A stretch of 64,000 nt of DNA from Lentzea tibetensis (GTDB lineage Bacteria > Actinomycetota > Actinomycetes > Mycobacteriales > Pseudonocardiaceae), in assembly GCF_007845675.1 (NCBI RefSeq), contig NZ_VOBR01000037.1:1-64000 (forward strand), in the 5' to 3' direction. The notes beneath the pieces are model-generated. The model did not search any database and was not told the origin of the DNA. It saw nothing but the letters and a program-made list of their open reading frames with translations. This document shows, one piece after another, positions 12,316 through 36,612 of the stretch. The translations under genes were made by a program, and so were the position numbers. Positions within the stretch are counted from its first letter, which is position 1, and each line of letters opens with the position of its first letter.

Positions 12316-12524
12316 TCAGGCTGTGGTTGAAGCTCTTGGCTGTTCTCTGGGCTACCACCTTCAAGGCCACCAAGGACTACCGACTGGGCCTGCCCGAGTG
12401 GGTGAGCCGCACCAGCGTGTACACGGCGCTTGCCCCGTACCTGCCGCTGGTTCGGCGGGTTCTTCTTGGTGGCTTCTGCCTGCTGTTCGTCGTGCTGCTG
12501 CTCGCATCGAACTGGAGCAGGTGA
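12306..12524 (+). CDS. 72-residue membrane protein
   Basis: GTG 12306 start. Hydrophobic helices at about 2-15 and 52-67 flank a polar segment (KATKDYRLGLPEW). The stop overlaps the ATPase GTG (GTGA at 12521-12524), so it is coupled directly to the ATPase. Confidence 0.6.
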   Translation: MFLIRLWLKLLAVLWATTFKATKDYRLGLPEWVSRTSVYTALAPYLPLVRRVLLGGFCLLFVVLLLASNWSR

Positions 12525-14692
12525 TCGAGGTGGGCGCGAGTAGCCCGTACAAGTGTTACCAGTTGACCTTCCCAGCCGACTTGGATGCCGGGCGGGTCAT
12601 GGCGTGGCTGCACACGGTGGTTGGCACGCTTCTTGCGGGCAGCGCTGGGCTCTTTACTCTGCCGACCATCGTTCTCGAGGTCATCGCCGATGATCGAGGC
12701 CTTCAACACCAGTTGCGGGTGCCGCCGGGGTGGGCCGACGATTTCGTGAGGCCGCTGCGCGCCTTGGTGCCAGGCATCACCGTCACGCCGAGCTCCACGT
12801 TGGTTGACCGCTCCTGGGGAGAGGCGGTTGAACTCGGCGCCCGCTCTCCTGCAGGACGCTTGAACGCGTTGTCCTCGGAGCATCTGACGGCGGGCCTGCT
12901 GAGCAGCCTTCAAGGCCTCGGCCGCGGCGAGGTAGTTGTGCTCCAGTGGGTGCTCGCGCCGGCGAGGGGCCAGAACCCGCCGATCAAGGGCAACGTTGGC
13001 GTCCCTGAAGCGTTCGGCTTCCACGCGAGCGGCAAGGGCGCGAAGGCCGATCGCAGCGCCAAGCCGGAGGCGCCGAACCTTCTTGGTGTTCTCCGGGTGG
13101 CTACCGAAGCCGAATCAGCCTCGCGGGCTCGGCAACTTCTCGGCCAGGTGCGGGCGGCGTTGGGCAGCGCCATCAACATGGGCACCCGCATCACGAAGCG
13201 GCCCAGTCTCTCGAAGAGCGCGCTCCGGCGACGCGTGGTCGAGGGCAGCGGGCTGTTGTTGTTCCCTGCGCGCATCTTGGTGCCTGAGTTGGTGGGTCTC
13301 ATCGGCTGGCCGATCGGGTCCCCACATGTTGCTGGACTCCAACAAGGACGGACGCGCCAACTTGCTGCCCCTGCTTCAGTTCCGCGCGCGGGGCGGGTGA
13401 TTGGCACCTCCAACTTCCCAGGCGCCGAGCGGCCGGTTGCCCTGTCCTACAAGGAAGCGGTGAAGCACCTCCACGTGCTGGGCCCGACTGGGGTAGGGAA
13501 GACGACGTTGCTCGCCAACATGGCCGCCCAGGACATGGAGCAGGGATACGGCGTCATGGTGCTGGAGAGCAAGGGCGACTTGTTCAACGCCGTGCTCGAC
13601 CGCGTACCGCGGAACCGAATCAACGACGTAATCGTGCTCGATGTAAACGACACCGGCATGCCGGTGGGCTTTAACATCTTGAACTCCGGTTCCTCGGCCT
13701 CGGCCATCGACGAGTTGAGCTCGCTCATCACCGGCATGTACGGCGAGAACGGCGTGTACGCGCCGATGCTCATGTACTTCGGCTTGCACGCGCTCGCGGC
13801 CACGCCTGGTAGCACGTTCATCGACTTGCCGACGATGCTCACGCCGCAAAGCCCAGAAGAGTCCGCCTGGCGCGAGGACGTGGTGAGGCGGGTGAAGAAC
13901 CCCAACGTGCGCCAGTTCTGGCAGCGGTACTTGAACGACAGCCGCAAGGATCAGGACCGCATGACGGCTCCTGTTCATAACCGCATCTGGCAGCTCGCCG
14001 TGCGGCCAGAGATTCGCAACATCATCGGGCAGAGCACGAGCAGCTTCACGTTCGAGGAAGTGTTGCGGGATAACAAGATACTGCTCATCAACCTCACGGG
14101 TGTGCGTGTGGGCGAGCAAACGGCGGGCCTCGTCGGCACGCTCCTGATGAACGCGCTCTACTCGGCGGCGCGCACCGTGAAGAAGAAGCGACCGTCCTTC
14201 TTGTACCTCGACGAGTTCCAGGACTTCATCAACTTGCCTGTGCCCGCGGCCGACATGTTGGCGAAGCTGCGCAGCTTCGGGCTCGGCCTGGTGCTTGCCC
14301 ACCAGGACCTCGATCAGCTCGCCAAGGTGCGTGGGCTTGAGCAAGCCGTTCTCGCCAACGCCCGCAGCAAGGTGGTGTTCCAAACCAGCGCCCGCGACGC
14401 CCGCGCCATGCAACGCGAGTTCGGCCGCCTGGTGAGTGAAGACGACTTCATCAACTTGGGCGCGTTCGAGGCCATTGCGCGCATCGCCACCGACGCCGGG
14501 GTGAGTCCACCGATCACCATCGCCACAGCGCCGCCCTCGAAGACCACCGGCATCGGCCGCGCCGCCAAGGCTGCCAGTCGTGCCAAGTACGGCCGCCCTG
14601 TTGCAGAGGTGGAAGCGGAGATCGACGCCCGCCGTCGCGTCGCGGTGAAGAAGCCCACCAAGCCCAACCTCGGCACGCAGAAGTGGGGCTGA
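12521..14692 (+). CDS. VirD4/TraG-like conjugation ATPase (module A)
   Basis: 723 residues from GTG 12521. The first 300 residues form an N-terminal domain without clear membrane helices. The P-loop is HVLGPTGVGKTTLLANM at about 325, followed by VLESKGDLFNAVLDRVP, and the Walker B is FLYLDEFQDF at about 560. AHQDLDQL and ANARSKVVFQ fit the C-terminal part of type IV secretion coupling ATPases. It probably moves DNA or recruits the transfer complex, and the small membrane proteins encoded upstream could supply its membrane anchor. A diverged paralogue lies at 30001-32223. Family call strong; exact class (VirD4 or VirB4-like) less so. Confidence 0.85.
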   Translation: MIEVGASSPYKCYQLTFPADLDAGRVMAWLHTVVGTLLAGSAGLFTLPTIVLEVIADDRGLQHQLRVPPGWADDFVRPLRALVPGITVTPSSTLVDRSWGEAVELGARSPAGRLNALSSEHLTAGLLSSLQGLGRGEVVVLQWVLAPARGQNPPIKGNVGVPEAFGFHASGKGAKADRSAKPEAPNLLGVLRVATEAESASRARQLLGQVRAALGSAINMGTRITKRPSLSKSALRRRVVEGSGLLLFPARILVPELVGLIGWPIGSPHVAGLQQGRTRQLAAPASVPRAGRVIGTSNFPGAERPVALSYKEAVKHLHVLGPTGVGKTTLLANMAAQDMEQGYGVMVLESKGDLFNAVLDRVPRNRINDVIVLDVNDTGMPVGFNILNSGSSASAIDELSSLITGMYGENGVYAPMLMYFGLHALAATPGSTFIDLPTMLTPQSPEESAWREDVVRRVKNPNVRQFWQRYLNDSRKDQDRMTAPVHNRIWQLAVRPEIRNIIGQSTSSFTFEEVLRDNKILLINLTGVRVGEQTAGLVGTLLMNALYSAARTVKKKRPSFLYLDEFQDFINLPVPAADMLAKLRSFGLGLVLAHQDLDQLAKVRGLEQAVLANARSKVVFQTSARDARAMQREFGRLVSEDDFINLGAFEAIARIATDAGVSPPITIATAPPSKTTGIGRAAKAASRAKYGRPVAEVEAEIDARRRVAVKKPTKPNLGTQKWG

Positions 14693-14693
14693 C

Positions 14694-14948
14694 ATGTCAC
14701 ATCTTGCTCGTGAGTTGCACCGGCAGCTCTGGTTTATCGAACGGCAGGCCAAGGACCTGATGCAGTCCGTTCAAAGCCTCTTGAGCGATGGCAACCTCCT
14801 AATGAGCGGCACCGACGGCTGGGATGAGGCGCAAGCCGGGGCCATCCGTACGGAGATTCACGACCACGCAGACGAGTGCGACCGGCGCATCTCGCAGGCC
14901 CAGGCCGAGGTTGATGAGTTCCGCCAGCGACTCGCGGGCAGCGGCTAA
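14694..14948 (+). CDS. Small helical protein between ATPase and replication-relaxation gene
   Basis: 84 residues, all-helical and charged (LHRQLWFIERQAKDLMQSVQ; EVDEFRQRLAG). Starts 1 bp after the ATPase stop, and its TAA overlaps the next ATG (TAATG). A 40-residue gene holds the same place in module B, though no sequence similarity is obvious. Confidence 0.6.
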   Translation: MSHLARELHRQLWFIERQAKDLMQSVQSLLSDGNLLMSGTDGWDEAQAGAIRTEIHDHADECDRRISQAQAEVDEFRQRLAGSG

Positions 14949-15691
14949 TGAACACCTTGAGTGGGAAGCAGCAGCTTTCAGCCCGTGACCGCAAGGTCAT
15001 CGACTACGTCGGCCAGTTCCGCCAGCTCACCGCCGGGCAGCTCCGTATGTTCGTCTTCGGGGAGCTGGCTTCGCCAACACCGTGCGACCGCACGCTGAGG
15101 CGCTTGGTGGACGGCAAGTACCTGATGCGACTGCATCGGCTCGTTGGTGGCACGCAGGGTGGTTCGGCGCAGTATGTGTACCAACTCGGCCGCCTTGGAT
15201 GGCGACTTCTAGAGCGAGCTGGCGAGTACTGGGCACCACGCGCCGTGAACCTCCATGCTCTCGCAGTCGCCGACTGCCTGGTGAAGCTGAAGACCGCGGA
15301 GAGGGCTGGTGCCCTTGAGGTGGCCTCGTTCATCACCGAGCCGGCGTGCCATGTGAAAGTGGCTGGCCTTCTGCTGACGCCGGACGCCTTCGTTGAGCTC
15401 AAGTTCGGCGGCAGTGGTGAGCGGTTGATCTCGTGGCTTGAGGTCGACCGCGGTACCGAGCATCTCAGCACCATCCAGGAGAAGTGCGAGCGGTACTGGA
15501 AGGCCTCGATCTCCGGCCAGTGGGACGGCTTCTTCCCGTTCGTGTTGTTCGTGGTGCCTGACGAGCAGCGGCAGCGCGCTATCGAGCGGGTAATCCGCAG
15601 CGGCCCATCAGCCGCGCATCAGTTATTCAGCGTGTGCCCTGTGAGCGAGTTTCCACAGATTCGGGATGGTGGTGACTCATGCGAAGCCTGA
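14948..15691 (+). CDS. Replication-relaxation family protein (module A)
   Basis: 247 residues. An N-terminal winged-helix-like region (KVIDYVGQFRQLTAGQLRMFVFG, then CDRTLRRLVDGKYLMRL) precedes a PD-(D/E)XK-like C-terminal part (LTPDAFVELKFG...LEVDRGTEHLSTIQEKCERYW), as in the Replic_Relax family found next to conjugation ATPases on actinobacterial plasmids and ICEs. The exact biochemical role is not settled; DNA binding at the transfer or replication origin is likely. Overlaps the next gene by 13 bp. Confidence 0.8.
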   Translation: MNTLSGKQQLSARDRKVIDYVGQFRQLTAGQLRMFVFGELASPTPCDRTLRRLVDGKYLMRLHRLVGGTQGGSAQYVYQLGRLGWRLLERAGEYWAPRAVNLHALAVADCLVKLKTAERAGALEVASFITEPACHVKVAGLLLTPDAFVELKFGGSGERLISWLEVDRGTEHLSTIQEKCERYWKASISGQWDGFFPFVLFVVPDEQRQRAIERVIRSGPSAAHQLFSVCPVSEFPQIRDGGDSCEA

Positions 15692-16856: not shown

Positions 16857-17857
16857 ATGAATCATGTAGTTCAGACGATTAGTAGCTCGATCGCTTCCGG
16901 CAGTGCAAACCGCTCGGTTGTCACTTCGAAGCGCTATATCGACTCGATGATTGCGGATATAGCAAAGGCGAAGGAGCGGGTTGTAGTTCTGGCCCTGCTT
17001 GTTAGTTGCGATGGAGAGACGGGCGGACTGTTCTCCGCGTTAGAGAGTGCGCTCGCTCGAGGTGTTGAAGTTCGGATAACCGTCGACGAGTACTACCTGC
17101 GCCTATATTTCGCTGGTAGAGCAAGTCGCCTGAGGGAACCCAGGAAAAGCTGGCGCAGCTTCGCTCTTGTGGTGCGAGTGTCACGCGGCTCAAGTCGGCC
17201 TCGCTGCATCCGTTCAAAGGACGGTGCCACAGCAAGATCACTATTATTGACGATGTTGTGTACAGCTTTGGCGGCACGAATATTGCTGACAAGGCCGTGC
17301 GCAACAACGACTTCATGATTCGAATGTGCAACCGGAATGTTGCTAGGAGGCTGTATCAGCTCTGCCTTGTGATCGAAGCTGGCAAAGCTCACGAGGACTT
17401 TCAGTTCCCTCTGGATGAGGGCAGCGTGGTGCTCGTTGATGGAGGGAAGCCGGGCAACTCGATTATCTACAGCAAGGCGTGTGAGCTGGCCGCTCGATCG
17501 CGTCGCGCCTACTACGTCTCCCAGTTCTGTCCTACCGGCCCGCTTGCTCGGCTGCTTCGTTCTACGGATACGAAATTCTACTTCAATCGCTCTGTCGCGA
17601 GCGCACCGCACATCGGCGCTATGCTCACTATCGACAAGGCGATTGGGCGGATAAGAACCGCGTACCGTGGTTCCAGTTATCTCCATGCGAAGCTTATGCT
17701 CGCGGAACTGGACGATGGTTCACGCGTCTTGCTGAGCGGGTCGCACAACTTCAAGAACCAAGGTGTTAAGTACGGGACGCAAGAGATAGCGCTGTATTCA
17801 AGTGATCCTGCTCTTTGGGATGAGCTTTACGCTTATGTTTCTAGAGATGTGGGTTGA
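16857..17857 (+). pseudogene. Phospholipase D-like gene split by a frameshift
   Basis: The first part (16857 to about 17110) and second part (from about 17125) are in different frames; joining them requires stepping back one base, as if one base were lost near 17110-17150. The joined product would be about 330 residues with two HKD motifs: HSKITIIDD near 17230 (in the second frame) and LHAKLMLAELDDG near 17683. PLD-fold enzymes include phospholipases, cardiolipin and phosphatidylserine synthases, and nucleases. Location behind the CDP-alcohol transferases favours a lipid enzyme. No canonical slippery heptamer was found, so decay or a sequencing error are the likely explanations. Confidence 0.72.
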
Positions 17858-18797: not shown

Positions 18798-18855
18798 TTA
18801 CTCACAGTAAGGTTGAAGTATCGGTTGCAACCGATATCCGCTGGTGTACCCTGTG
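18798..18855 (+). promoter_or_regulatory. Operator-like palindromes and promoter
   Basis: TTACT-CAC-AGTAA at 18798-18810, then a perfect 18-bp palindrome TATCGGTTGCAACCGATA at 18819-18836. TTGCAA inside it (18826-18831) can act as a -35 with TACCCT about 17 bp downstream, so a repressor bound here would block the promoter leading to the 58-residue gene at 19019. Confidence 0.6.
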
Positions 18856-18865
18856 TCTTAGAAGC

Positions 18866-18905
18866 CAAAGACCCCGCTCTCGGGGTCTGGCTCCGAGACG
18901 GGGTC
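18866..18905. terminator. GC-rich stem-loop in the leader
   Basis: AGACCCCG-CTCT-CGGGGTCT followed by a second copy of GACGGGGTCTT downstream. It could act as a terminator or attenuator between the operator and the 19019 gene. No T-tract follows, so the role is uncertain. Confidence 0.35.
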
Positions 18906-19018
18906 TTGAGTGCGATGGCACGCTCTTGTGACTCTACTGGACGAGGCTCGACCGGGCGTTTGGTCGATGCACTTTCGTGACTCGGGGCTGTGCAGCTTCG
19001 GGAAGGAGGTGCATGGCT

Positions 19019-19195
19019 ATGGCTGGAAAGGCTGTTCGGCCGGGTACGCCCGCGCCGACCTCTGGTCAGTACCGCCCGAAGGGTGGTGGCAACGAGGTGA
19101 CGGTCCCGAAGGGGCACCGTCTCCCGCCCACCCCGAAGCCGGGGCAGACCTGGGTGAACGTCGACCCGACCAAGAACAAGAGCGGTCGGGGCTGA
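19019..19195 (+). CDS. 58-residue YjzC-like small protein
   Basis: ATG 19019 chosen because GGAAGGAGG ends 9 bases upstream (an ATG two codons earlier is the alternative). The sequence TSGQYRPKGGGNEVTVPKGHRLPP and PGQTWVNVDPT resembles YjzC-type small proteins (SGQY..., G-x-x-x-PP, W). Preceded by the 18-bp palindrome and followed by a hairpin, it is a monocistronic, probably regulated gene. Function unknown. Confidence 0.65.
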   Translation: MAGKAVRPGTPAPTSGQYRPKGGGNEVTVPKGHRLPPTPKPGQTWVNVDPTKNKSGRG

Positions 19196-19204
19196 TGATC
19201 CGGG

Positions 19205-19230
19205 GCTGGAATCCACGCCCGGATTCCAGC
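19205..19230 (+). terminator. Hairpin after the 58-residue gene
   Basis: Perfect 10-bp stem GCTGGAATCC / GGATTCCAGC with a 6-base loop; no T-tract. Confidence 0.6.
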
Positions 19231-19290
19231 TCTCGGGCTTGCTGTGGCGAGCTGGCTACTACTTCGGCGTGCAAGGGGAAGATGCACGGC

Positions 19291-19301
19291 TTGTAGTACA
19301 A
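19291..19301. promoter_or_regulatory. Candidate antitoxin operator
   Basis: Perfect palindrome TTGTA-G-TACAA about 33 bp before the toxin ATG, a position typical for autoregulation by the HigA-type antitoxin. Inference from symmetry and place only. Confidence 0.35.
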
Positions 19302-19333
19302 CCATCCCCGGTTGGAAGGCGAACGGAGCCTCT

Positions 19334-19753
19334 ATGGTCAGCGGTGCCCGGCAGGCATCTGGAGATGAAAATAACCAGCCGAAGTCTGCCCAAGCCGCCC
19401 GTCGAAAGTGGCGATGGTACCGGACTGAGTCGGGACGTCTGATTGCGCGAGAAGAGTTTGATGCATTGCCCGAAAGGGCTCGGGCTGGCTTGTCGAACGC
19501 GATTGAACGCTACCTGACAGGGCAATCCCGCCGTAACGATATCGACTCTCTCGGCCGCGGGATCTATGAGATCAGGCACCGGTACTCCAACAACCACCAT
19601 CGCGTGCTCTTCACGCATTGGGGTCAGTACTGTGTGGCGTTGACGGCGTTCTACAAGAACCAGCCGAAGACGCCGAAAACTGACCTCAACCGGGCTATTG
19701 ATCGGGCGCGCTGGTGGCGAGATGCTAACGGCGATGAGCCGGGAGGCGGCTAG
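19334..19753 (+). CDS. HigB/RelE-type toxin of a TAC operon
   Basis: 139 residues from ATG 19334 (GGAG upstream). The C-terminal part has the HigB/RelE-like signature: LGRGIYEIRHRYSNNHHRVLF, then ALTAFYKNQPKTPKTDLNRA. Homologues are ribosome-dependent or ribosome-independent mRNA interferases that stop translation. Toxin-first order followed by an XRE antitoxin is typical of HigBA. The N-terminal 45 residues (polar, basic) are longer than usual. Confidence 0.83.
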   Translation: MVSGARQASGDENNQPKSAQAARRKWRWYRTESGRLIAREEFDALPERARAGLSNAIERYLTGQSRRNDIDSLGRGIYEIRHRYSNNHHRVLFTHWGQYCVALTAFYKNQPKTPKTDLNRAIDRARWWRDANGDEPGGG

Positions 19754-19817
19754 GCCGCTAAGATCCCCCTCCTGACCGTAGACCGACGCTGGGGTCAAGC
19801 TGACGTGGGAGCTTCAT

Positions 19818-20279
19818 ATGAGCGCAAACGACGAGCAGAAGTTCGTTGTGGACGAATTCGAAGACGAGTTCGGCGCATACCTGGAAGAGGCGAAGCAGAG
19901 CCCTGTCTTCCGCGCTGAGTACGAGGACGCTGACGATCGTCAGCACCTGATCGATGCTCTCGTGATGCTGCGGCAGGCGCTCGGCCTCTCTCAGAAGGAG
20001 GTGGCCAAGCGCATGGGAATCGGCCAGCCGACGGTTTCGGGCTTCGAGAAGGAGTCGAGCGATCCGAAGCTGTCGACTCTCCAGCGATACGCGCGGGCGG
20101 TTGAAGCGCGGCTGCAGGTCAAGGTTGACCTGCCCGCCGTCTGTGACTGGGTTCCCACCGGGTTTACCGCCTATGGGAAGTGGGAGCGGGTGGCACCGAA
20201 GAGGCCGGAGATGCACTCGAGTGGCCTTGCACGTGACTGGGCTGCAAACTCGCAGCGCGACTACGAGCAGGTGGCATGA
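19818..20279 (+). CDS. HigA-type antitoxin with C-terminal extension
   Basis: 153 residues. The helix-turn-helix lies at about 52-90 (LGLSQKEVAKRMGIGQPTVSGFE). An acidic N-terminal arm precedes it and an extra C-terminal segment (about 105-153, CDWVPTGFTAYGKWER) follows. In chaperone-dependent HigBA systems such a tail (chaperone-addiction region) makes the antitoxin unstable unless a SecB-like chaperone binds. The next gene is that chaperone, overlapping by ATGA at 20276-20279. Confidence 0.83.
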   Translation: MSANDEQKFVVDEFEDEFGAYLEEAKQSPVFRAEYEDADDRQHLIDALVMLRQALGLSQKEVAKRMGIGQPTVSGFEKESSDPKLSTLQRYARAVEARLQVKVDLPAVCDWVPTGFTAYGKWERVAPKRPEMHSSGLARDWAANSQRDYEQVA

Positions 20280-20779
20280 CGAGCCTTAATCTTCAGGAAG
20301 CGCGTCATTTTGCAGCGCGTATCGCCGCGCGCGCTGATATCCGCGAAGTTCGCCTCCTGGAGAGTAACTTCAAGCTGAACCGGATGCCGGTCAATGACCA
20401 TCTGGTGTACAAGCTTGAGAAGGATCCGCAGGTTGAGTACAGCGAGGGTGACGGGTTTTTCGTTATCACGTCACGTTACTCACTGCTGATCGCTGAAGTT
20501 GAGCACGAGTCCGCAAACGTACCTAACCAGACTGAAGAGGGCGAAGAAGACGTCATCGCGATGGTCGACTTCAAACTGGCTGGCCTCTTCGAGTTGAACA
20601 TGCGGGAAGACGACGATGCTCCTCGCATCGACGAGCTGATGGCCTACGCGTGGAGCATGGGCAACTTCGCGTTGCATCCTTACGCCCGTGAGTACATCTC
20701 TAACGTCACAAGCCGCTTGGGTCTTCCGCCGCTGACGATCAACGTGCTTCAGCTCGACTACGACCCCGACAAGGGGTGA
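20276..20779 (+). CDS. SecB-like chaperone of the TAC operon
   Basis: 167 residues. Beta-rich with the SecB-type end: ALHPYAREYISNVTSRLGLPPL, corresponding to the PYARE-x-I...PP-x-x-L motif. Actinobacteria rarely have general SecB export; the known solitary examples stabilise antitoxins, as Rv1957 does for HigA1 in Mycobacterium tuberculosis. Gene order toxin-antitoxin-chaperone is the same. It should protect the antitoxin tail so that loss of the element, or chaperone titration, frees the toxin. Confidence 0.78.
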   Translation: MTSLNLQEARHFAARIAARADIREVRLLESNFKLNRMPVNDHLVYKLEKDPQVEYSEGDGFFVITSRYSLLIAEVEHESANVPNQTEEGEEDVIAMVDFKLAGLFELNMREDDDAPRIDELMAYAWSMGNFALHPYAREYISNVTSRLGLPPLTINVLQLDYDPDKG

Positions 20780-20850: not shown

Positions 20851-21687
20851 TCAGTACTCCAACCGCAAGCACTGCTCCTTGGTGGCTGCGAGCAGCCGAG
20901 CGATGAGCGAGTCGAACTCTCCGTGCTCGATGATCGGCATGAACGAGATGGTCTCGAACGCCACGCCGTGCCGGATCGTCAGCCACTCATCTGCCCCGTC
21001 AACGTGGCAGATGAAGCACAAGTCCTTGTAGTAGAAGGATGTGCCGAGCGCCCAGCTGCCGTGCTCGAACCGCTCGCGCAGCTCCCGCAGGCTGAAGCAG
21101 CCGGTGAAGCTGTCGGGCGTGAACTCGGGGTCTACCGCGTCGTGCAGCGGTGGTGTGGAGCGGCCGATCTTGTACCAGACGTCGCGCAACTCCTGCGGCA
21201 GCTCTGGGACAACCCGAACCTCCGTCACCGCCGGCCAGCGGATGGCGAGGCCAACCACCAGGCGGTAGGCGTCGCTCCAGGTCTCGAGCACCTGCGTGCC
21301 CGTGAACCACCCAGGGTGGCCGTCCATCTTGAGCTGTGTGAGGTACCGCTTGGTGTTGAACAGGAGCTCCACTAGCTCGGCCGGTGCGTCCTGGTCGTCA
21401 CCGTTGGCATCGGGTGGCCCCACGATGAGGCCGGGACCAACGATGACGTCCTCAAGGCGGAAGTCGGTGTTATGCGCCCAAAGGAGCGTGGAGAGGCGTG
21501 GGTTGACCGGAAGGTCCTCGAGCTTGCCCTCGGCGTTGAAGTAGATCGCGCCGCGGGGCTCCATGAGCTCGACCGCTTCCAAGTTGCCGCCAACGATGCG
21601 GCGGTACGCATCGAGGTCGGCGTGGTCCAGCTGCTCCAGCCGCACTGGTTTGTCGATGTTGGTAGGTACGACGATGGCTTGCACCAT
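20851..21687 (-). CDS. DUF3846-domain protein, full-length copy
   Basis: 278 residues from ATG 21687 (an ATG seven codons earlier is possible). The N-terminal DUF3846 part (IVVPTNIDKPVRLEQLDHADLDAY, then RIVGGNLEAVEL and LLWAHNTDFR) is followed by a second domain with WFTGTQVLETW and YYKDLCFICHVDG. DUF3846 proteins are common on actinobacterial plasmids and phages, function unknown. A shortened second copy is at 23496-23846, with a matching upstream region. Confidence 0.7.
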   Translation of the reverse strand: MVQAIVVPTNIDKPVRLEQLDHADLDAYRRIVGGNLEAVELMEPRGAIYFNAEGKLEDLPVNPRLSTLLWAHNTDFRLEDVIVGPGLIVGPPDANGDDQDAPAELVELLFNTKRYLTQLKMDGHPGWFTGTQVLETWSDAYRLVVGLAIRWPAVTEVRVVPELPQELRDVWYKIGRSTPPLHDAVDPEFTPDSFTGCFSLRELRERFEHGSWALGTSFYYKDLCFICHVDGADEWLTIRHGVAFETISFMPIIEHGEFDSLIARLLAATKEQCLRLEY

Positions 21688-21806
21688 GACTGCCCACTTA
21701 GGAACCACATGACCGTTGCCTGATGGGCGGGTTCATATCCACACCAGGCCGCTGCGCCATACGCGTCGGGCTATGCGGCCTCGTGTTGATCGGTGGTCCT
21801 GTCTCC

Positions 21807-23246: not shown

Positions 23247-23546
23247 ATGACTGAGTACATCTACAGGGCCTTCGGTGAAGCAGCGGGTTTCGTTAACGGG
23301 CGCTTCATCCATGACATGGATGGTCGCCCCATCGGCAAATTGAACGGCACGCACGTGCACCAACTGTCAGGGGACTACGTCGGTGAGCTGCACGAGCAAA
23401 TGGTTGTGGACATGCATCTTGGCAGTTTTGGCAGTATTGGTAGTTCCGGTAATCCTGGCAATGTTGGACGCCCAGGAAATCCAGGTGGTCGCGGCTCAAT
23501 TGGGCTTAGCTACAACGACATGTTTGACCGATTGCTGCGAGACTAG
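23247..23546 (+). CDS. Small protein with collagen-like Gly-X-Y tract
   Basis: 99 residues from ATG 23247. Residues 1-55 are a repetitive beta unit (YIYRAFGEAAGFVNGRFIHDMDG, IGKLNGTHVHQL, YVGELHEQMVVD) resembling proteins annotated as 4-fold beta flap. About ten consecutive Gly-X-X triplets follow (GSFGSIGSSGNPGNVGRPG...), then a short charged end. Gly-X-Y runs can form collagen-like triple helices, so trimerisation is plausible. No export signal seen. Its 3' end overlaps the opposing truncated DUF3846 gene by 51 bp. Confidence 0.62.
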   Translation: MTEYIYRAFGEAAGFVNGRFIHDMDGRPIGKLNGTHVHQLSGDYVGELHEQMVVDMHLGSFGSIGSSGNPGNVGRPGNPGGRGSIGLSYNDMFDRLLRD

Positions 23547-23846
23547 CGTTAAGCAAGTTGGGCTCTGTCTATTCTCGCCCACGATGAAGCCCGGTCTCAT
23601 GATGGCGTCCTCGTTGAGGAACAAGCTGTTGTGTATCCACAGCAGCGTGGTCAGACGCAGGTTCAGCGGCAGCTTAAGAAGCTTGCCTTCATCGTGGAAG
23701 TACACCGCGGCGGCTGGCTCGATGAAGTTCACTGCAGCCAGGTTCCCACCAACGATCTGGCGGTAGGCGTTGAGATCGTGTGGATCCAGTTCCTGGAGCC
23801 GGATCGGTTCAAGTAGGTGCGTAGGGATAACAATGGCTTTCACCAT
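23496..23846 (-). pseudogene. Truncated DUF3846 copy
   Basis: About 116 residues. AIVIPTHLLEPIRLQELDPHDLNAY, QIVGGNLAAVNF and LLWIHNSLF align with the full-length copy at 20851-21687, but similarity stops after GFIVG. The last ~25 residues are unrelated and the second domain is missing. The upstream 70 bp are also alike between copies. It may still make the short domain; called a degraded duplicate. Confidence 0.6.
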
Positions 23847-23959
23847 GACATGCTCACTTACGAACCACATGACCCTATGCCTGGCAGGAGGGTTCACATC
23901 CACACCAGGCGGCACCCTAGGAACTGTGTCTGGCGTTAATGGAACTTGCTCTTAGTTCC

Positions 23960-23992: not shown

Positions 23993-24229
23993 AAAAGAAA
24001 TCGTCTGTGAGTGCCCGGCATTGGTCGTGATAGTGAACCATGGTGAGTGGAGAGCGGTGGAGGGGGTAAGAATCAACTGAAACTGCAATACTAGGATGTC
24101 CTGCCGGCCGTCGTATCCCGGAAGATTCCTTACGGCGTGTACTGAAGGTTCGGCATCGATTCTAGGCAAACAATTTTGATCTTGCCCCGCTCTCGGGGTG
24201 GTTGTGCTGCAGGGCTAGGATCTCGGACT

Positions 24230-25084
24230 ATGCCTAACGTAACCCTCGCCGTATCGTCGGAAGATCTTGAACCGAAGCTTCTGGGCAGAGAAGAGATTGG
24301 CCAGGCGCTACTTGATCTGCCCCGCACCACACAAAGTGAGATCGAAACGTTCAAGCAGCAGTACTTCGAGTGGGATGATTTCAATGTCGCGCTTTTAGAG
24401 GCGTCATTCAAATCCAGCGGTTGGATGACAACAACGCCTGTCAGTGACTACCGCAGTGTCGGCGCCCAGATCATTGATATCAGGCTGACCAAAGCTGTTC
24501 CAGGTATCCCCGCCGACAGGATCGATGCCGTCTTGAACGACATCCGGGCGAAGTGTGGTGTGTTGCGGTCGATTGCGAATCGACTAGAGGTCTATCCGCG
24601 CGACGATAGCGATGGGCAGTCTGAAAGCTTGGCGTCGTCTGGCAGTGCAATCTTCATTGTTCACGGGCACGCACTGCTGCTACGCGAAAACGTACGGCGT
24701 TTTCTGGAGCGGGTCACCGAACGGCAAGTCATTGTGCTCGAAGATGAAGCTAATCAAGGACATGACGTCCTGGAGAAGCTACTAAAGAGCGCAGAACAGG
24801 CAGCGTACGCAGTCGTTCTTCTCACTGGCGATGATGAAGGCCGCAAGCTAGGCGATGGTGAGTGGCGACCCCGCGCACGCCAGAACGTTGTTCTGGAACT
24901 GGGTCTCTTCCTCGGCATGCTCGGACGATCGAAGGTTGCTGCCCTATACGAGGGAGGCGTCGAAATTCCGAGTGACTTCGCCGGGGTCGTGTACATCAGC
25001 CTGGACAGCGAAGGCTGGAAGATGAAGCTTGCTACCGAACTCAAGAACGCTGGTATCGAGGTTGATCTGAATAAGGCGATCTAA
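24230..25084 (+). CDS. TIR-domain nucleotide-binding effector (Cap12/Pycsar-type)
   Basis: 284 residues from ATG 24230. Residues 1-130 are a charged helical N-terminal domain of unknown family. From about 140 the sequence follows the TIR-like predicted nucleotide-binding family: AIFIVHGHALLLRENVRRFL, VIVLEDEANQG, YAVVLLTGDDEG, RARQNVVLELGLFLGMLGR and PSDFAGVVYI. Relatives are NAD-cleaving effectors in phage defence. Here no cyclase or other sensor gene is adjacent, so the N-terminal domain may be the sensor. TAGGAT at 24215-24220 is a possible -10 giving an almost leaderless mRNA. Confidence 0.8.
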   Translation: MPNVTLAVSSEDLEPKLLGREEIGQALLDLPRTTQSEIETFKQQYFEWDDFNVALLEASFKSSGWMTTTPVSDYRSVGAQIIDIRLTKAVPGIPADRIDAVLNDIRAKCGVLRSIANRLEVYPRDDSDGQSESLASSGSAIFIVHGHALLLRENVRRFLERVTERQVIVLEDEANQGHDVLEKLLKSAEQAAYAVVLLTGDDEGRKLGDGEWRPRARQNVVLELGLFLGMLGRSKVAALYEGGVEIPSDFAGVVYISLDSEGWKMKLATELKNAGIEVDLNKAI

Positions 25085-27311: not shown

Positions 27312-28727
27312 CTAGCGCCTTTTGACGGCAACGCTGACGGCAACCGCACCCAACATCCACTGCCTCGTAACTCGTTTGGTCACCAACTTTACCTCGGTGG
27401 AACGGTCGAAAACCGTGTCTCCAGTCGACCTCATAAGCCTAAGGTCACTGGTTCGATCCCAGTCGCTGCTACCAGATAGAAATGATGTAATCCGATCAAC
27501 GATTTTGCTGTTTGACGGCAGTAGTTGACGGCAACGACCCGCACTGTGACGGCCGCGCTCTTTTGCGCGGTCGTCTGTTTGTTGGCTGAGGAGAGCGACT
27601 CCTACTTTGGTGAGGACGTCTCGTTGCGCTTCGGCGGTGCCGTGGGTGTAGATCTGCAGTGTGGTTGAGACGTTGGAGTGTCCCAGGATGATCTGGGCAT
27701 CCTTCACCGAAGCGCCAAAGTCCTTAAGGAGCGTTCCGGTGAAGTGCTTGGTGTGGTGCAGCTTGGTTCGGCGGATGCCGTGTCGGGCGCAGATGCGTTG
27801 GAACGAGCGAGCGACGTTCCGCGGTTCGATGGGGTTGCCAGTGCGCGTGGTGAACACCAGTTCGTGTGCGTCGTCGGTTCCCTGCCAAGCCTCACCCGCT
27901 TCACGCCGAGCTTCAAGCTGCTTGGCACGGCACTTCAGCAGTTCGTCACGGGCAGCCGGAAGCAACGGGAAGTCTCGTTCACCGGCCTGGGTTTTCACTG
28001 GGCCAACACGCAGTGCGCCTGCGACGCGTTGTATTTGCTGGCGGGTTTGGAAGATTAGGCGGTCAAGGTTGATGTCGGACCAGCGGAGGCCGACTGATTC
28101 TCCAACGCGCAGCCCGTAAACCAGGAGCAGGATGAATAATGGATAGAGGGAGTCGCCTGTGGCGGCCTGCAGGAACTGCCTGGCTTCACCGACGGTCCAC
28201 GGTGTGATGGCGCCCTTACGGTATCCCGGTAGCTCAACTAGTTCGGCGACATTACGGCCGACAAGTTCCTCCCGCTTGGCGCGGTTGAGAGCGGCTCGCA
28301 GTACAGCGCGCATGACTTGCGCTGTTCGTATGGAGCAGCCGGCCTCGATCTGCTGGTTCACGAAGAACTGAACAACCTGCACCGAGAGCTTCCGTAGCGA
28401 GTAATTGCCGAGCCCCGGCTTGAGGTGTATACGGACTACGCCTTCGTAGCGGACATAGGTCGTTGGCCGTCGGCTCGGCTGTACGACTGTTTCGAGCCAG
28501 TGGTCGAGGTACTCGCCAAGCTTCCACGTACGTTCCGCTGTTGGAATTCCTTGTATGAGATCGACCTTGGCTTCGGCTAGCTTCTCTGCAACTTCCACGC
28601 GACGCTTGCCGTAGATGCGGAAGCGCTTCCGCTTTCCGCTTGGCGTGAAGACATAGAGTGCGGCCTCGTACCGCCCGTCTTTGCGGCGGTAGATCGACCC
28701 CTCGCCGTTAGCGCGGCGAGCCATCAC
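27312..28727 (-). CDS. int: Tyrosine site-specific integrase
   Basis: 471 residues. Arm-binding N-terminus (about 5-60), SAM-like core-binding domain (about 65-165) and catalytic domain (about 175-385). Catalytic residues: Arg207 (GLRVGE), Lys245, His324, His350 (LGH) and Tyr360 (IYTH). The second Arg of the H-x-x-R box is Lys327 (HHTKH), an unusual change from one AGG-to-AAG base. The C-terminal ~80 residues are an extension that reads through the tRNA-Met attachment site (SGSSDWDRTSDLRLM). GTGA overlap with the excisionase gene. Confidence 0.9.
   Translation of the reverse strand: MMARRANGEGSIYRRKDGRYEAALYVFTPSGKRKRFRIYGKRRVEVAEKLAEAKVDLIQGIPTAERTWKLGEYLDHWLETVVQPSRRPTTYVRYEGVVRIHLKPGLGNYSLRKLSVQVVQFFVNQQIEAGCSIRTAQVMRAVLRAALNRAKREELVGRNVAELVELPGYRKGAITPWTVGEARQFLQAATGDSLYPLFILLLVYGLRVGESVGLRWSDINLDRLIFQTRQQIQRVAGALRVGPVKTQAGERDFPLLPAARDELLKCRAKQLEARREAGEAWQGTDDAHELVFTTRTGNPIEPRNVARSFQRICARHGIRRTKLHHTKHFTGTLLKDFGASVKDAQIILGHSNVSTTLQIYTHGTAEAQRDVLTKVGVALLSQQTDDRAKERGRHSAGRCRQLLPSNSKIVDRITSFLSGSSDWDRTSDLRLMRSTGDTVFDRSTEVKLVTKRVTRQWMLGAVAVSVAVKRR
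27428..27474 (+). repeat. tRNA-Met 3'-end fragment, attachment-site core
   Basis: From the anticodon loop (CTCATAA) through a perfect T-arm (ACTGG-TTCGATC-CCAGT) to the acceptor 3' strand CGCTGCT-A-CCA. No tRNA 5' half lies upstream. It overlaps the 3' end of the integrase gene, as expected of attP, with element DNA on both sides. Confidence 0.78.
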
Positions 28728-28981
28728 TCAATGTCCTCCGCAAGTCTTCGGCGGACATAGGCGTCAATGCTCGCCTGCGGGATACGGCGGCTTCGGCCAA
28801 TCTTTATCGTCTCTATCGCTCGTGAGCGTATGAGGTCGTATAGCGTCCAGCGGCTAATCCGCAACGCCTCGCAGGCCTCGCGTACGGTCAACAAGGCCGG
28901 GCTTAGCTTCTTGAACGCGCGCGCTTCCCGCTCGGACTGCGGGTGGTCGTTGCTAGGTTTCGGCGGTATTTTGAGTGACAT
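28724..28981 (-). CDS. xis: Excisionase / helix-turn-helix protein
   Basis: 85 residues from ATG 28981, 7 bases after GGAGG; an ATG two codons earlier is too close to the site. MerR-like winged helix typical of Xis: LLTVREACEALRISRWTLYDLI, then KIGRSRRIPQASIDAYVRR. It binds attachment-site arms and biases the integrase to excision. Overlaps int by GTGA. Confidence 0.85.
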   Translation of the reverse strand: MSLKIPPKPSNDHPQSEREARAFKKLSPALLTVREACEALRISRWTLYDLIRSRAIETIKIGRSRRIPQASIDAYVRRRLAEDIE

Positions 28982-29030
28982 GTTCATCCTCCTTCATTCT
29001 ATATCTATGTGCTTACTATGTGAATCCTGA

Positions 29031-29882
29031 TCAGCCGCCATCCGGAGGTGCCCGCCCGTTTGCCTGCTCAACGGCCTCTTCGGGTGGGGTCGCAAGAAGA
29101 CCGGGACCATCCCGGGCCAGCGCGACGGTGAAGAGCTCGGCCCCTTTGAGAGCGAGCTTGCCGATCGCGCGCTGGATGTTGGTCAGCCGATGCTCATCTG
29201 GCACCAACCACACGACCATCGGGAAGACGCCGGTGCGCTGTTGCTCAACCCCGGTGTTCCAGTAGGCGATGAACCGCAGGCACTTGCGCTCAATCGTTGG
29301 CACGCTCTCGGTGGCGAGGTCGACCTCAACGAAGACGTGGCGCTCGAACTGCTGGACGCCGAGGCGCACGTAGGCGTCGGGCTTGAGGACGATGAGCTCC
29401 CCGCCACTGCCAGTGAAGTGCCGCCAGCACGCAGGTTCGCCGTCGAAGGCCACAAGGTCAACCTGTCCTTGCTGCTCGAGCTCGCGTAGGCGCACGTACA
29501 ACTCGGCCACGGCGAGCATGTGGTCTTGGAAGTACGGCTTGGTCTCCCAGACCCGGCGACGCCGACCACCGGTCGGTCCACCGACCTCAAGGGCGGCTTG
29601 GCCCAAGGCGGAGAGGCCGTACACGAACCCGGAGGAACCTGCGCGGACACCGCCGATGACGCGGGAGAACCGCACCACGAGCCCGAGCGTCTGCAGGCGC
29701 TTCAACAGGTACTGGGCGCGGCGGATGCGGGACTGATGTGGCCCTTCAACGAGGTGGAGTCGTTGTACCTGGGCCGTGGTGAGCAGCCGGAAGCTATGCA
29801 GCGAGCCGAGCACCGCAAGGGGGAGAGCACCAACTTGCTCACGAAGTCGTGCGGCTCGGCCGCGTTCCTGCCGATCCGTCAT
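29031..29882 (-). CDS. Replication-relaxation family protein (module B)
   Basis: 283 residues from ATG 29882 (AGGAG 8 bases upstream; ATGA overlap with the 40-codon gene before it). Same plan as the module A protein: LGSLHSFRLLTTAQVQRLHL, YLLKRLQTLGLVVRFSRVIGG, then LKPDAYVRLG...FVEVDLATESVPTIERKCLRFIAYW. Differences are extensive, so the two modules diverged long ago or were acquired separately. Lies 49 bp before xis. Confidence 0.8.
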   Translation of the reverse strand: MTDRQERGRAARLREQVGALPLAVLGSLHSFRLLTTAQVQRLHLVEGPHQSRIRRAQYLLKRLQTLGLVVRFSRVIGGVRAGSSGFVYGLSALGQAALEVGGPTGGRRRRVWETKPYFQDHMLAVAELYVRLRELEQQGQVDLVAFDGEPACWRHFTGSGGELIVLKPDAYVRLGVQQFERHVFVEVDLATESVPTIERKCLRFIAYWNTGVEQQRTGVFPMVVWLVPDEHRLTNIQRAIGKLALKGAELFTVALARDGPGLLATPPEEAVEQANGRAPPDGG

Positions 29883-30001
29883 AGCGCAGCTCCTGGCGGA
29901 GAGACAGTCGTTGGCACTTCCGCTCGATCTACAGAGAAGACGAACCACCATGACGCCACGCGATGCGTGAACCGATGCGAACCAAGTCGGAGCAGGCTCA
30001 T
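29879..30001 (-). CDS. 40-residue linker gene of module B
   Basis: ATG shares a base with the ATPase stop (TGATG) and its TGA overlaps the next ATG (ATGA). Peptide has a short hydrophobic part (VASWWFVFSV). It takes the same place as the 84-residue gene of module A. Supported by coupling only. Confidence 0.5.
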   Translation of the reverse strand: MSLLRLGSHRFTHRVASWWFVFSVDRAEVPTTVSPPGAAL

Positions 30002-32223: not shown

Positions 32224-32334
32224 GCCTCCTCCTTTCACGTTATTTCACGGCGCCCTCCCTTGGCAAGCCAAAAATAGGGTCTAGTTAATCCTGATTTCAT
32301 ATTCTTGCTAGGAAAGCAAGCTGCTGTTGAAGTA

Positions 32335-32927: not shown

Positions 32928-33146
32928 ATGAGAGTGAAGGCGCATGTAAAAAAGACAACGCTCCGCGACGGAAAGCCGCGAAGCGTTGCGCGTGATGTTC
33001 AGACTAAAGCCCGTTTGAAGGATTCAACCAAGCATGCTGCTGCTGATACTTGGATAGTGTCGCAGCTTCAAAAAGCGCCTACGCTGAGCGCAAAGCGGTG
33101 GAACCGGATTGCGGCGCTTCTTGGCGGAAGACGACCTTTAACCTAG
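32928..33146 (+). CDS. Small basic protein convergent with the serine recombinase
   Basis: 72 residues, very rich in Lys/Arg (VKAHVKKTTLRDGKPRSVAR; LSAKRWNRIAALLGGRRPL). The last third resembles a helix used for DNA binding. Own TATAAT promoter; overlaps the recombinase 3' end tail-to-tail by 68 bp. A recombination directionality factor is one possibility, by position only. Confidence 0.5.
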   Translation: MRVKAHVKKTTLRDGKPRSVARDVQTKARLKDSTKHAAADTWIVSQLQKAPTLSAKRWNRIAALLGGRRPLT

Positions 33147-34668
33147 TAGGCTCGAAACGGTTGCTTGGTCGGCTTGCTGGATCGAGAACGATCACCTCAA
33201 CCAGCTCGTCAACGATGGCTCGGCGCTCGTCGGTGTCCAGGTGTTCCCATGAGTCGGCTACGTTGGTCACCTTCGGGCCGGTCTGTTGGCGGTTGAACAA
33301 GGACTGTTCTTTGGTGAGCGCAGTAATCTCCTTTTCAAGTTCGCGGATCTGTGGCCAGATGTACGTACCCATGTCGGTGTTCTGCTTGAACTGCTCAAGC
33401 AGGTCGGTACGCTTCCGATGAGCATCTTCAAGTTCCTGGCTCCTAGGCCATGGCTTGACTGCCTGTGTCACCGTACGGTTAGCAAGGTACGCAAGAATGA
33501 GCTTGGTAACCAAGTCGTCGATTGCGATGCCAGCACCGCAAACTTGGCCACAGCCGCCATCAACACTCGGCGGCTTGCAGGCGTAAACGTGACGCCCGTT
33601 TGGTTGGGCTCCTCCTAGACACTTTCGACCGCAGTTGCCACAGCGGATCTTGCCCGAGCACAGGTAGCGCTTTTTGCCGGTGTAAGCATGACCTTCTGGG
33701 CGGCCGGGGCCAACCAGAACGGCAACGACTTTGTTGTACGTCTTCTCATCCATGATGGGCTCGTGCTGCGCTTTCACCGGTTTACCGAACTCGTCGACGG
33801 CGTATCGCTCATGAAGCGGCTTAGTAGTTGGCCCATACACCCGACGGCCAACCATGCGCGGGTTGGTCATCATCAAGACGAAGTTGCGCCGCTTCCACGG
33901 ATTGCCCATCGGGGTTAGAACACCGGCTTCAGTCCAGCGCTTGCAGATGGTGTACGCCGGTAGGCCATTGAACAAATCTTCAATGGCCTTGTTGATGTGC
34001 ACCACTTCTTCAGCAAAGAGTGTGCGCCGATCGGCCCACCAGCCGAAGGGGCGGTTGCCGCCACCGGTGGGAATTCCCGCGTGGGCACGTGCACGGTGGC
34101 TAGCGCGAAGGCGGCGTGAGGTTGCGACGGACTGCTTGCCAGCCATCGTCACGAGAACGCGCGCCATGTCACGCCCGTTCTCGGTGAGGAGGTCGAGCGA
34201 GCCGGTTATATCTATGATCGGCCGTTGGAAGAACTCCACCACTTCGATGGCGTCTTCCATGTTGCGCTGGTCGCGCGTGAGGCGGTCGATGTCATAAACG
34301 ATGATGCCGTCAAGCTTGCTGCCGTTGGGGGCAATGCCGCGCTTTAGGTCGGAGAGAGCGCCCTCGAACACTGGCCGAATAACACGGTACTTGTATGTGC
34401 CATCTGGTTGCTTGACCCGCTTCTTCTTCCAGGCGGAAGTATCGGGTTCATCGTATGTGTAGACGTAACTACCGCCACGGCTGGTGACATGCTGACGGCA
34501 GAGTTTCACTTGCTCGTCGCGGTTATTAATATCTGCGCCGCTACGTGGTGCGTGCGCGTTCTCGTAATCCGTATCTGTCTCAAAGGACAGTCGCACCAAC
34601 CCGGCCAGGTTCAGACCGCTTAAATCGCCTCTGTGAGCGCGTTCAATGCTGTTGAGTTGGGCTTGCAT
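33079..34668 (-). CDS. Large serine recombinase (integrase)
   Basis: 529 residues. Resolvase domain about 22-190 with catalytic Ser28 in VRLSFETD, DEQ motif and IVYDIDRLTRD. Recombinase domain about 200-310 (GNRPFGW, ICKRWTEAGVLTPMGNPW). Zinc ribbon about 340-385 (CSGKIRCGNCGRKC...YACKPP). A coiled coil lies at about 410-460. All parts of an active phage- or ICE-type integrase are present. It lies next to the element-chromosome junction inside an ABC ATPase gene, so it is the probable agent of this insertion. Confidence 0.93.
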   Translation of the reverse strand: MQAQLNSIERAHRGDLSGLNLAGLVRLSFETDTDYENAHAPRSGADINNRDEQVKLCRQHVTSRGGSYVYTYDEPDTSAWKKKRVKQPDGTYKYRVIRPVFEGALSDLKRGIAPNGSKLDGIIVYDIDRLTRDQRNMEDAIEVVEFFQRPIIDITGSLDLLTENGRDMARVLVTMAGKQSVATSRRLRASHRARAHAGIPTGGGNRPFGWWADRRTLFAEEVVHINKAIEDLFNGLPAYTICKRWTEAGVLTPMGNPWKRRNFVLMMTNPRMVGRRVYGPTTKPLHERYAVDEFGKPVKAQHEPIMDEKTYNKVVAVLVGPGRPEGHAYTGKKRYLCSGKIRCGNCGRKCLGGAQPNGRHVYACKPPSVDGGCGQVCGAGIAIDDLVTKLILAYLANRTVTQAVKPWPRSQELEDAHRKRTDLLEQFKQNTDMGTYIWPQIRELEKEITALTKEQSLFNRQQTGPKVTNVADSWEHLDTDERRAIVDELVEVIVLDPASRPSNRFEPTRLKVVFRQEAPQSGSTALRSA

Positions 34669-34725
34669 AGGGTAGTGCTCCTGTTACTCATTGTAACATT
34701 TTGCACTTCCTATGTGAACCGTCTG
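34669..34725. other. Element-chromosome junction (att site)
   Basis: The ABC ATPase frame is normal up to GVVFGQ (CAG at 34723-34725) and then runs into element DNA, ending in TVHIGSAKCYNE. A short hairpin GTTAC-TCATT-GTAAC is at 34683-34697. The recombination core must lie at about 34718-34726. Confidence 0.75.
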
Positions 34726-35007
34726 CCCGAACACGACACCGATCCGCCGCGTGAGCTCCTTGCGTTGCCGCGCGGGATCGACACCGCTGACCCGCACGTG
34801 CCCGGACGTGGGCACGAGGATGCCGGTCAGCATCTTGATCGTGGTCGACTTGCCCGCGCCGTTCGGGCCGACGTAGCCGACGGCCTCGCCCTCGGCGACG
34901 TCGAAGCTCACGTCGTCCACGGCCACGACGTCCCGGTACTCGCGGCGCAACCCGCGTTTCTTCACCGGCACCCGGAACTCGCGCCGCAGGTCCCTGACTT
35001 CGATCAT
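34684..35007 (-). pseudogene. ABC-2 exporter ATPase, cut by the element
   Basis: Only the first ~95 residues remain: MIEVRDLRREFRVPVKKRG, Walker A GPNGAGKSTT, and RIGVVFGQ, where the family continues R-T/S-Q-L-W-W-D. The signature motif, Walker B and the C-terminal half (about 220 residues) are missing. ATGA overlap with the permease gene shows it was the last gene of the operon. The exporter is probably inactive unless the element excises. Confidence 0.88.
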
Positions 35008-36603: not shown

Positions 36604-36612
36604 GCGGGTTTT

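What the first reader, a model, noticed from the sequence alone, without database searches (positions are those of the whole stretch)
19334..20779. Toxin-antitoxin-SecB-like chaperone (TAC) operon on the mobile element
HigB-type toxin, HigA-type antitoxin with an extra C-terminal segment, and a SecB-like protein with the PYARE-like C-terminal block, in the same order as the M. tuberculosis TAC system and with ATGA coupling. A chaperone-dependent addiction module could stabilise the element or sense proteotoxic or phage stress.
Basis: partly seen in the sequence, partly recalled or inferred. Interest (0 to 1): 0.7.

Follow-up and report, generated by a model that had tools for sequence, protein, structure and literature searches.

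The report
Chaperone-guarded toxin-antitoxin operon on island
A soil actinomycete carries, on a mobile DNA island, a toxin whose antidote probably works only when a dedicated helper protein keeps it folded, preceded by a tiny, unusually conserved fourth gene of unknown purpose that looks like part of the same operon.

Summary
At 19334-20779 lie a HigB/Gp49-type toxin, a HigA-type antitoxin with a C-terminal tail like the chaperone-addiction (ChAD) tail, and a SecB-fold chaperone. Closest solved relatives of toxin and chaperone are those of the M. tuberculosis TAC system. Of 11 chaperone residues known to matter for tail binding, 10 are identical; the tail keeps the key Trp and Tyr. The operon lies on an island interrupting an ABC-transporter gene: in 24 of 24 other genomes of the genus searched, the main match starts at base 34723.

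A 58-aa YjzC-like gene (19019-19195) precedes the toxin in 5 of 6 complete loci of this type and is 79-98% identical where the TAC proteins are 35-86%. A palindrome of the published HigA1-motif form precedes it in 5 of 5. The M. tuberculosis operon also begins with a YjzC-like gene of unknown function (PMC3912914, passages).

Verdict: a new member of a known kind, the Rv1954A-Rv1957-type TAC. Most worth pursuing is the co-inherited fourth gene. Toxicity, chaperone dependence and element stabilisation are inferred, not shown.

The parts
18819..18836 (.). 18-bp perfect palindrome, candidate HigA operator
   Evidence: Form of the published HigA1 motif ATATAGG-N6-CCTATAT (PMC8669151, passage); best-matching place in each of 5 records scanned, 3 mismatches of 14 here; once in the 9.36 Mb genome with up to 2 mismatches, control 0.
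18825..18852 (+). possible promoter TTGCAA-N16-TACCCT overlapping the operator
   Evidence: Read by eye and aligned across loci; the formal sigma-70 scan found none.
18868..18907 (+). leader hairpin
   Evidence: Stem also present in 4 of 5 loci with different arm letters; folding z -3.2, -2.6, -4.4 and 0.18 against single-base shuffles; no Rfam match.
19019..19195 (+). YjzC-like 58-aa gene, candidate fourth component
   Evidence: Conserved upstream of the toxin in 5 of 6 complete loci; 79-98% identity; Pfam YjzC 19.0 bits, under its cut-off of 25; small beta model, pLDDT 78.6, pTM 0.56, from 3 sequences.
19205..19230 (.). inverted repeat just after the yjzC stop
   Evidence: 10-bp arms, 6-base loop; a repeat at the same place in 4 of 5 loci.
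19334..19753 (+). HigB/Gp49-type toxin
   Evidence: Pfam Gp49 1.2e-13; PDB HigB1 5.2e-30; 7 of 9 listed active-site residues identical (alignment, PMC9098466 passages).
19818..20279 (+). HigA-type antitoxin
   Evidence: HTH_3 1.9e-12 at residues 51-94; conserved in 6 loci.
20130..20276 (+). antitoxin tail, residues 105-153, ChAD-like
   Evidence: W111, Y119, W141; aligned first W in 5 of 6, Y in 6 of 6, second W in 4 of 6 loci.
20276..20779 (+). SecB-like TAC chaperone
   Evidence: Rv1957 6.6e-26; AlphaFold pLDDT 80; Foldseek top hit 5mtw.
33079..34668 (-). serine recombinase at the island's right end
   Evidence: Pfam Recombinase 3.1e-11, Resolvase 1.4e-8; chromosome of 24 of 24 other genus members aligns from 34723.

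Best explanation
This is a toxin-antitoxin-chaperone operon of the M. tuberculosis Rv1954A-Rv1957 type, carried by a mobile island in an actinomycete of the genus Lentzea. Inferred mechanism: the toxin enters the ribosomal A site and cuts mRNA; the antitoxin neutralises it but, because of its exposed tail, is unstable unless the operon's own SecB-like tetramer binds the tail at its Trp and Tyr anchors. When the chaperone is occupied by other unfolded proteins, or is no longer made, the antitoxin is degraded and growth stops. The antitoxin also represses its own operon at the palindrome upstream of the YjzC-like gene, so all four genes rise when antitoxin falls. On the island this would act as a chaperone-dependent addiction module. 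Shown here: genes, chaperone fold, conserved binding and catalytic residues, conserved palindrome, position on the island. Inferred: toxicity, chaperone dependence, autorepression, stabilisation. My odds: TAC mechanism 0.9; autorepression at the palindrome 0.85; yjzC functionally part of the module 0.6; main selected role element maintenance 0.45, defence or stress response 0.35.
For: Toxin and chaperone: best PDB matches are the M. tuberculosis TAC proteins; chaperone fold. Pocket: 10 of 11 chaperone residues needed for toxin control (PMC6377645 sections 8, 9) identical on the alignment, E24 for D27; binomial P 3.5e-4 at 37% identity. Tail Trp/Tyr/Trp. Toxin pocket 7 of 9 identical. Operon with ATGA overlap in window, L. 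indica, Amycolatopsis and Rhodococcus. Palindrome in 5 of 5 loci carrying yjzC, once in the own genome. Island edge.
Against: No function was tested. Toxin residues K58 and Q98 of the published enzyme are D71 and P111 here, and K58A abolished toxicity there. ChAD Arg110 has no clear counterpart and Trp-Tyr spacing is 8 instead of 6. The palindrome has 3 of 14 mismatches to the published motif in Lentzea. No formal sigma-70 promoter and no DNA-damage promoter (motif recalled) were found. G134 has no ATGA overlap (8-base gap) and no second Trp.
Confidence: 0.87

Rival explanations
1. Anti-phage abortive-infection module: the same TAC chain, but the chaperone's trigger is a phage protein, as in CmdTAC, and the selected role is defence rather than element stability.
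For: CmdC senses newly made capsid protein and releases the antitoxin for ClpP degradation (PMC11618068, abstract and passages). The chaperone matches PADLOC model PD-T4-9_C at 2.5e-5 (that this is CmdC is recalled). The island also carries a CAP12/Pycsar-type TIR gene.
Against: The toxin matches no Cmd model; the PADLOC chaperone match may only reflect shared SecB ancestry. No relative in phage records or viral contigs. No infection data.
Confidence: 0.3
2. The YjzC-like gene is a neighbour, not a component: a common plasmid gene that was caught next to the toxin once and is inherited with it.
For: YjzC-like genes occur on many plasmids (31 records). Of 10 such plasmid neighbourhoods opened none has a HigB profile hit, though two hold other TA genes (VapC; DUF1778 plus GNAT). 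C. glaucum's TAC and 0 of 6 distant SecB-like loci have it.
Against: It is the most conserved protein of the operon (79-98% against 35-86%), changes mostly at synonymous sites against Rhodococcus (pS 0.60, pN 0.07), and lies behind the candidate antitoxin operator in 5 of 5.
Confidence: 0.4
3. An ordinary two-gene HigBA whose SecB-like neighbour works only in general folding or export.
For: The chaperone is SecB-like; export SecBs share the fold. Dependence was not tested.
Against: Tail anchors and chaperone pocket are both kept; Tyr45 is at the place that is Y49 in the TAC chaperone and V40 in E. coli SecB (PMC6377645 section 9); overlap of the two genes.
Confidence: 0.07

Closest known systems
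M. tuberculosis TAC operon Rv1954A-Rv1955(HigB1)-Rv1956(HigA1)-Rv1957(SecB-TA)
   Same: Same families in the same order, best PDB matches for toxin and chaperone, a YjzC-like first gene (PMC3912914, passages), an operator of the same form upstream (PMC8669151, passage), conserved tail-binding pocket.
   Different: On an island in Lentzea; Trp-Tyr spacing 8 against 6; toxin K58 and Q98 replaced; no DNA-damage promoter motif found before the toxin (motif recalled). I did not compare the Rv1954A sequence itself.
CmdTAC anti-phage system (PMC11618068)
   Same: SecB-like chaperone protecting an antitoxin from degradation.
   Different: Its toxin is an mRNA ADP-ribosyltransferase; here the toxin is of HigB/Gp49 type.
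Two-gene HigBA systems
   Same: Gp49-type toxin before HTH antitoxin.
   Different: Here a ChAD-like tail and a SecB-like chaperone gene are added.
YjzC family (PF14168)
   Same: The fourth gene's sequence resembles it (19.0 bits).
   Different: Below the family cut-off; TAC-linked copies score 128-132 bits against 66.8 or less for the 14 other family hits with a model of the TAC-linked copies, a model that favours them by construction.

Membership tests
TAC (toxin-antitoxin-chaperone) | Type II toxin gene followed by antitoxin gene | tested here: met
   Gp49/HigB and HTH antitoxin.
TAC (toxin-antitoxin-chaperone) | SecB-fold chaperone in the same operon | tested here: met
   4-base overlap with the antitoxin gene. 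Co-transcription not tested.
TAC (toxin-antitoxin-chaperone) | C-terminal ChAD extension with aromatic and basic SecB-binding motifs | tested here: met
   49-residue tail with W111, Y119, W141; Arg110 counterpart unclear.
TAC (toxin-antitoxin-chaperone) | ChAD-binding surface on the chaperone | tested here: met
   10 of 11 residues identical.
TAC (toxin-antitoxin-chaperone) | Toxin inhibition requires the chaperone | not testable with these tools
   Needs expression tests.
Rv1954A-Rv1957-type four-gene TAC | YjzC-like gene as first gene | tested here: met
   19019-19195; Pfam score below the cut-off.
Rv1954A-Rv1957-type four-gene TAC | HigA operator of form ATATAGG-N6-CCTATAT before the first gene | tested here: met
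   3 of 14 mismatches here, perfect palindrome, best place in the window. Binding not tested.
Rv1954A-Rv1957-type four-gene TAC | DNA-damage promoter directly before the toxin | tested here: inconclusive
   Recalled motif has no match at 19196-19333 with up to 3 mismatches.
CmdTAC | ADP-ribosyltransferase toxin | tested here: not met
   Toxin is Gp49/HigB; no Cmd toxin match in PADLOC.

The most novel reading that the evidence does not exclude
The actinobacterial HigB-TAC is really a four-protein system. A dedicated subfamily of YjzC-like proteins, co-inherited with the TAC genes and made from the antitoxin-repressed promoter, acts in the module. Because it stays 79-88% identical outside Lentzea while toxin, antitoxin and chaperone fall to 35-52%, its partner is probably a conserved host component (for example ribosome, polymerase or protease) rather than the other three proteins; it may set when the toxin acts or protect cells while the promoter is open.
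Probability: 0.5. Interest if true: 0.7.

Novelty: new member of a known kind. Interest (0 to 1): 0.47.

Why it matters
The detailed TAC mechanism (structure, tail binding, ribosome complex) in the papers seen here comes from one pathogen's operon. A soil-actinomycete member with the same four-gene layout, operator form and chaperone pocket gives a safe model. Comparison shows what is kept between the two Lentzea copies (operator, leader, YjzC-like gene, DNA-binding half of the antitoxin) and what drifts (toxin, addiction tail, chaperone). It makes a neglected question testable: what does the first gene of this operon do? It also places this TAC type on or beside mobile elements in several genomes, which fits an addiction or defence role.

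Tried and rejected
Chaperone search in viral contigs (4 pattern matches, 0 relatives) and phage records (none): no phage-borne relatives found. The genome-contig scan gave 3 confirmed loci of 108 candidate stretches; two (L. indica, Amycolatopsis) are the same loci as G013 and G648 and are counted once; L047 repeats G134. I first thought the YjzC-like gene might be a general partner of HigB modules: not borne out, 0 of 14 weaker family loci (L033-L046) and 0 of 12 other loci (L013-L024) have a HigB profile hit, with only 1.5-3 kb of flank; two of ten plasmid neighbourhoods do hold other TA genes. I asked whether yjzC belongs to every TAC: no (C. glaucum and 0 of 6 distant SecB-like loci; of those six, 5 have a HigA and 3 a HigB profile hit, two of the three weak). 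A general DNA-level constraint on yjzC: rejected (pS 0.50-0.60 outside Lentzea); its 97.7% nucleotide identity between the two Lentzea loci (pS 0.05) then suggests recent exchange. DNA-damage promoter: not found. Formal promoter scan: none. Rfam: none. PDB sequence search for the YjzC-like protein: nothing better than E=1.4. Its model came late; two attempts to search its fold failed because the machine was busy, so its fold family is unknown. The island's left end is not in the window.

Full report
OBSERVATION. Antitoxin and chaperone overlap by ATGA; toxin and antitoxin are 64 bases apart. The toxin hits Pfam Gp49 (1.2e-13) and, in the PDB at E up to 1, only M. tuberculosis HigB1 (7awk 5.2e-30, 7nbu 2.9e-29). 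The chaperone's best PDB sequence match is Rv1957 (5mtw, 6.6e-26), far ahead of SecB of 1fx3 (0.05). Its AlphaFold model (pLDDT 80, pTM 0.72, 4 sequences) has four 5mtw chains as first hits and then H. influenzae SecB. The antitoxin has an HTH at 51-94 and a tail of about 49 residues.

TAIL AND POCKET. PMC6377645 (passages and sections 8 and 9) gives the ChAD peptide, its anchors W108, R110 and Y114, a second motif at W137, and the chaperone residues whose alanine change most impaired toxin control or was found important: D27, R29, L47, Y49, F67, I77, L108, L154, P155, P156, L157. PMC5105189 section 5 shows that W108 and W137 together are needed for chaperone binding. Mapped by hand on the alignment, 10 of the 11 residues are identical in the window (E24 for D27); at 37% overall identity that has binomial P 3.5e-4. 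The window tail has W111, Y119 and W141. In the six-locus alignment the first W is present in 5 of 6 (not C. glaucum), the Y in 6 of 6, the second W in 4 of 6 (not G134, not C. glaucum). R110 has no clear counterpart.

TOXIN POCKET. Of nine residues discussed around the mRNA in PMC9098466 (passages), seven are identical on the alignment (E66, R68, N73, R77, F93, K95, K99). K58 is D71 and Q98 is P111; in that paper K58A abolished toxicity and Q98A was mild.

A FOURTH GENE. Upstream of the toxin lies a 58-codon gene (19019-19195), YjzC-like at Pfam E=0.0018, 19.0 bits against a cut-off of 25. It precedes the toxin in 5 of 6 complete HigB-HigA-SecB loci of this type: the window, Lentzea indica PSKA42 (G013, L006), G134 (unnamed, same order), Amycolatopsis sp. 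NBRC 101858 (G648, L007), and Rhodococcus sp. NBC_00294 plasmid NZ_CP108045, where PLSDB's table lists no gene for it. The sixth, Corynebacterium glaucum, lacks it, although its chaperone is no further from the window's (35%) than the Rhodococcus one. Identities to the window, in the order L. indica, G134, Amycolatopsis, Rhodococcus: YjzC-like 98, 79, 83, 88%; toxin 82, 36, 49, 47%; antitoxin 86, 38, 52, 40%; chaperone 76, 40, 45, 35%. With a model of these five copies, 17 of 388 family genomes have any match; three score 128-132 bits and are the three TAC genomes (3 of 391); the other 14 score at most 66.8. The two calls drew nearly the same genomes, each scored only some first-look candidates, and the model favours TAC-linked copies by construction. 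With the window copy alone, 5 of 150 relatives match, three of them the three TAC genomes. Homologues elsewhere are common on plasmids: 31 records, ten of whose neighbourhoods I opened; none has a HigB profile hit, two have other TA genes. Distant SecB-like loci of the order lack it (0 of 6). PMC3912914 (passages) says Rv1954A, first gene of the M. tuberculosis operon, is YjzC-like with unknown function; PMC2897130 (passages) named it and reports that it is made as a protein. Its model here is a small beta fold (pLDDT 78.6, pTM 0.56, three sequences); a fold search could not be run.

OPERATOR AND LEADER. PMC8669151 (passage) gives the HigA1 motif ATATAGG-N6-CCTATAT. In all five loci that carry yjzC, a site of this form lies 182, 182, 177, 180 and 78 bases before it, with 3, 3, 1, 2 and 1 mismatches of 14, and it is the single best place in each record scanned (10 to 64 kb). 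In Lentzea it is a perfect 18-bp palindrome, found once in the 9.36 Mb genome with up to 2 mismatches, control 0. TTGCAA inside it and TACCCT 16 bases on look like a promoter; the formal scan does not call one. A leader hairpin follows in 4 of 5 loci with different arm letters (z -3.2, -2.6, -4.4, 0.18 against single-base shuffles; four sequences, two near-identical, so covariation is not claimed). An inverted repeat follows the yjzC stop in 4 of 5. No Rfam match.

MOSAIC. Between the two Lentzea loci nucleotide identity is 90-91% over operator region, leader and yjzC-toxin gap, 97.7% in yjzC and 93.6% over antitoxin codons 1-104, but 80% in the toxin, 75% in the addiction tail, 78% in the chaperone and 58-75% in the flanks. 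yjzC pS is 0.05 against 0.53 and 0.55 for toxin and chaperone. Recent exchange of the operon head is the simplest reading; selection is the alternative.

ISLAND. Bases 1-34722 have G+C 60.3% against 69.5% beyond and carry coupling-protein and replication-relaxation genes in two sets, a tyrosine integrase and a serine recombinase. In 24 of 24 other genomes of the genus searched the main match to 34000-38000 starts at 34723; three (G012, G013, G014) have a separate hit in the recombinase part elsewhere. In the four genomes looked at further, 12 kb on the other side of the site matches nothing in the window. The interrupted gene encodes an ABC ATPase (motifs read by eye); its other half ends contig C52, 360 bases before that contig stops, and both junctions share CTGCCCG. 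So the left junction is off the window and the TAC lies 13.9 kb inside the right edge. Elsewhere: G134's TAC is beside an integrase, with a primase and coupling protein near; the Amycolatopsis TAC is within 10 kb of a primase-polymerase gene; the Rhodococcus TAC is on a plasmid. The L. indica neighbours were not searched against families. Host genus: G013 is 'same genus' as the window and its contig equals the L. indica record in length and position.

RARITY. The chaperone is found in 3 of 150 relatives, 3 of 391 family genomes, 2 of 396 phylum genomes, one weak and partial, and 9 of 397 order genomes, seven of them weak; each count includes the window's own genome.

VERDICT. TAC membership is met on each structural feature tested; function is inferred. 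The kind is known. The less-studied part is the co-inherited fourth gene with its operator. In the paper searches made (open-licence PMC texts; listings, abstracts, passages and the sections named) I saw no report that the YjzC-like gene and operator are conserved in TAC loci outside M. tuberculosis; subscription papers and supplements were not checked.

Noticed in passing
window 24176-25084: Gene with a CAP12/Pycsar-type TIR domain (Pfam 4.8e-33), a likely defence effector on the same island; no partner searched for.
   Followed up: no
window 34722/34723 and G000:C52 near 37790: Insertion site of the island inside an ABC ATPase gene; both junctions share CTGCCCG.
   Followed up: partly
window 12323-15691 and 27312-32238: Two separate sets of coupling-protein plus replication-relaxation genes, the second with a tyrosine integrase: possibly two elements nested or fused.
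   Followed up: no
window 20851-21708 and 23496-23915: Two DUF3846 genes on the - strand, the second shorter; a related gene also lies near the TAC in L. indica.
   Followed up: partly
window 16857-17857: Two overlapping frames, the second with a weak PLD-like match; looks like a frame-shifted gene.
   Followed up: no
L055 (G551), L056 (G1080), L057 (G145), L058 (G902), L059 (G1063): Distant SecB-like genes beside HigA-like genes (HigB-like also in L055, weakly in L056 and L057), without the YjzC-like gene: other TAC-like loci in the order.
   Followed up: partly
plasmid records: YjzC-like genes are scattered on plasmids of actinobacteria, alphaproteobacteria, cyanobacteria and enterobacteria, often annotated only as hypothetical; function unknown.
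   Followed up: partly
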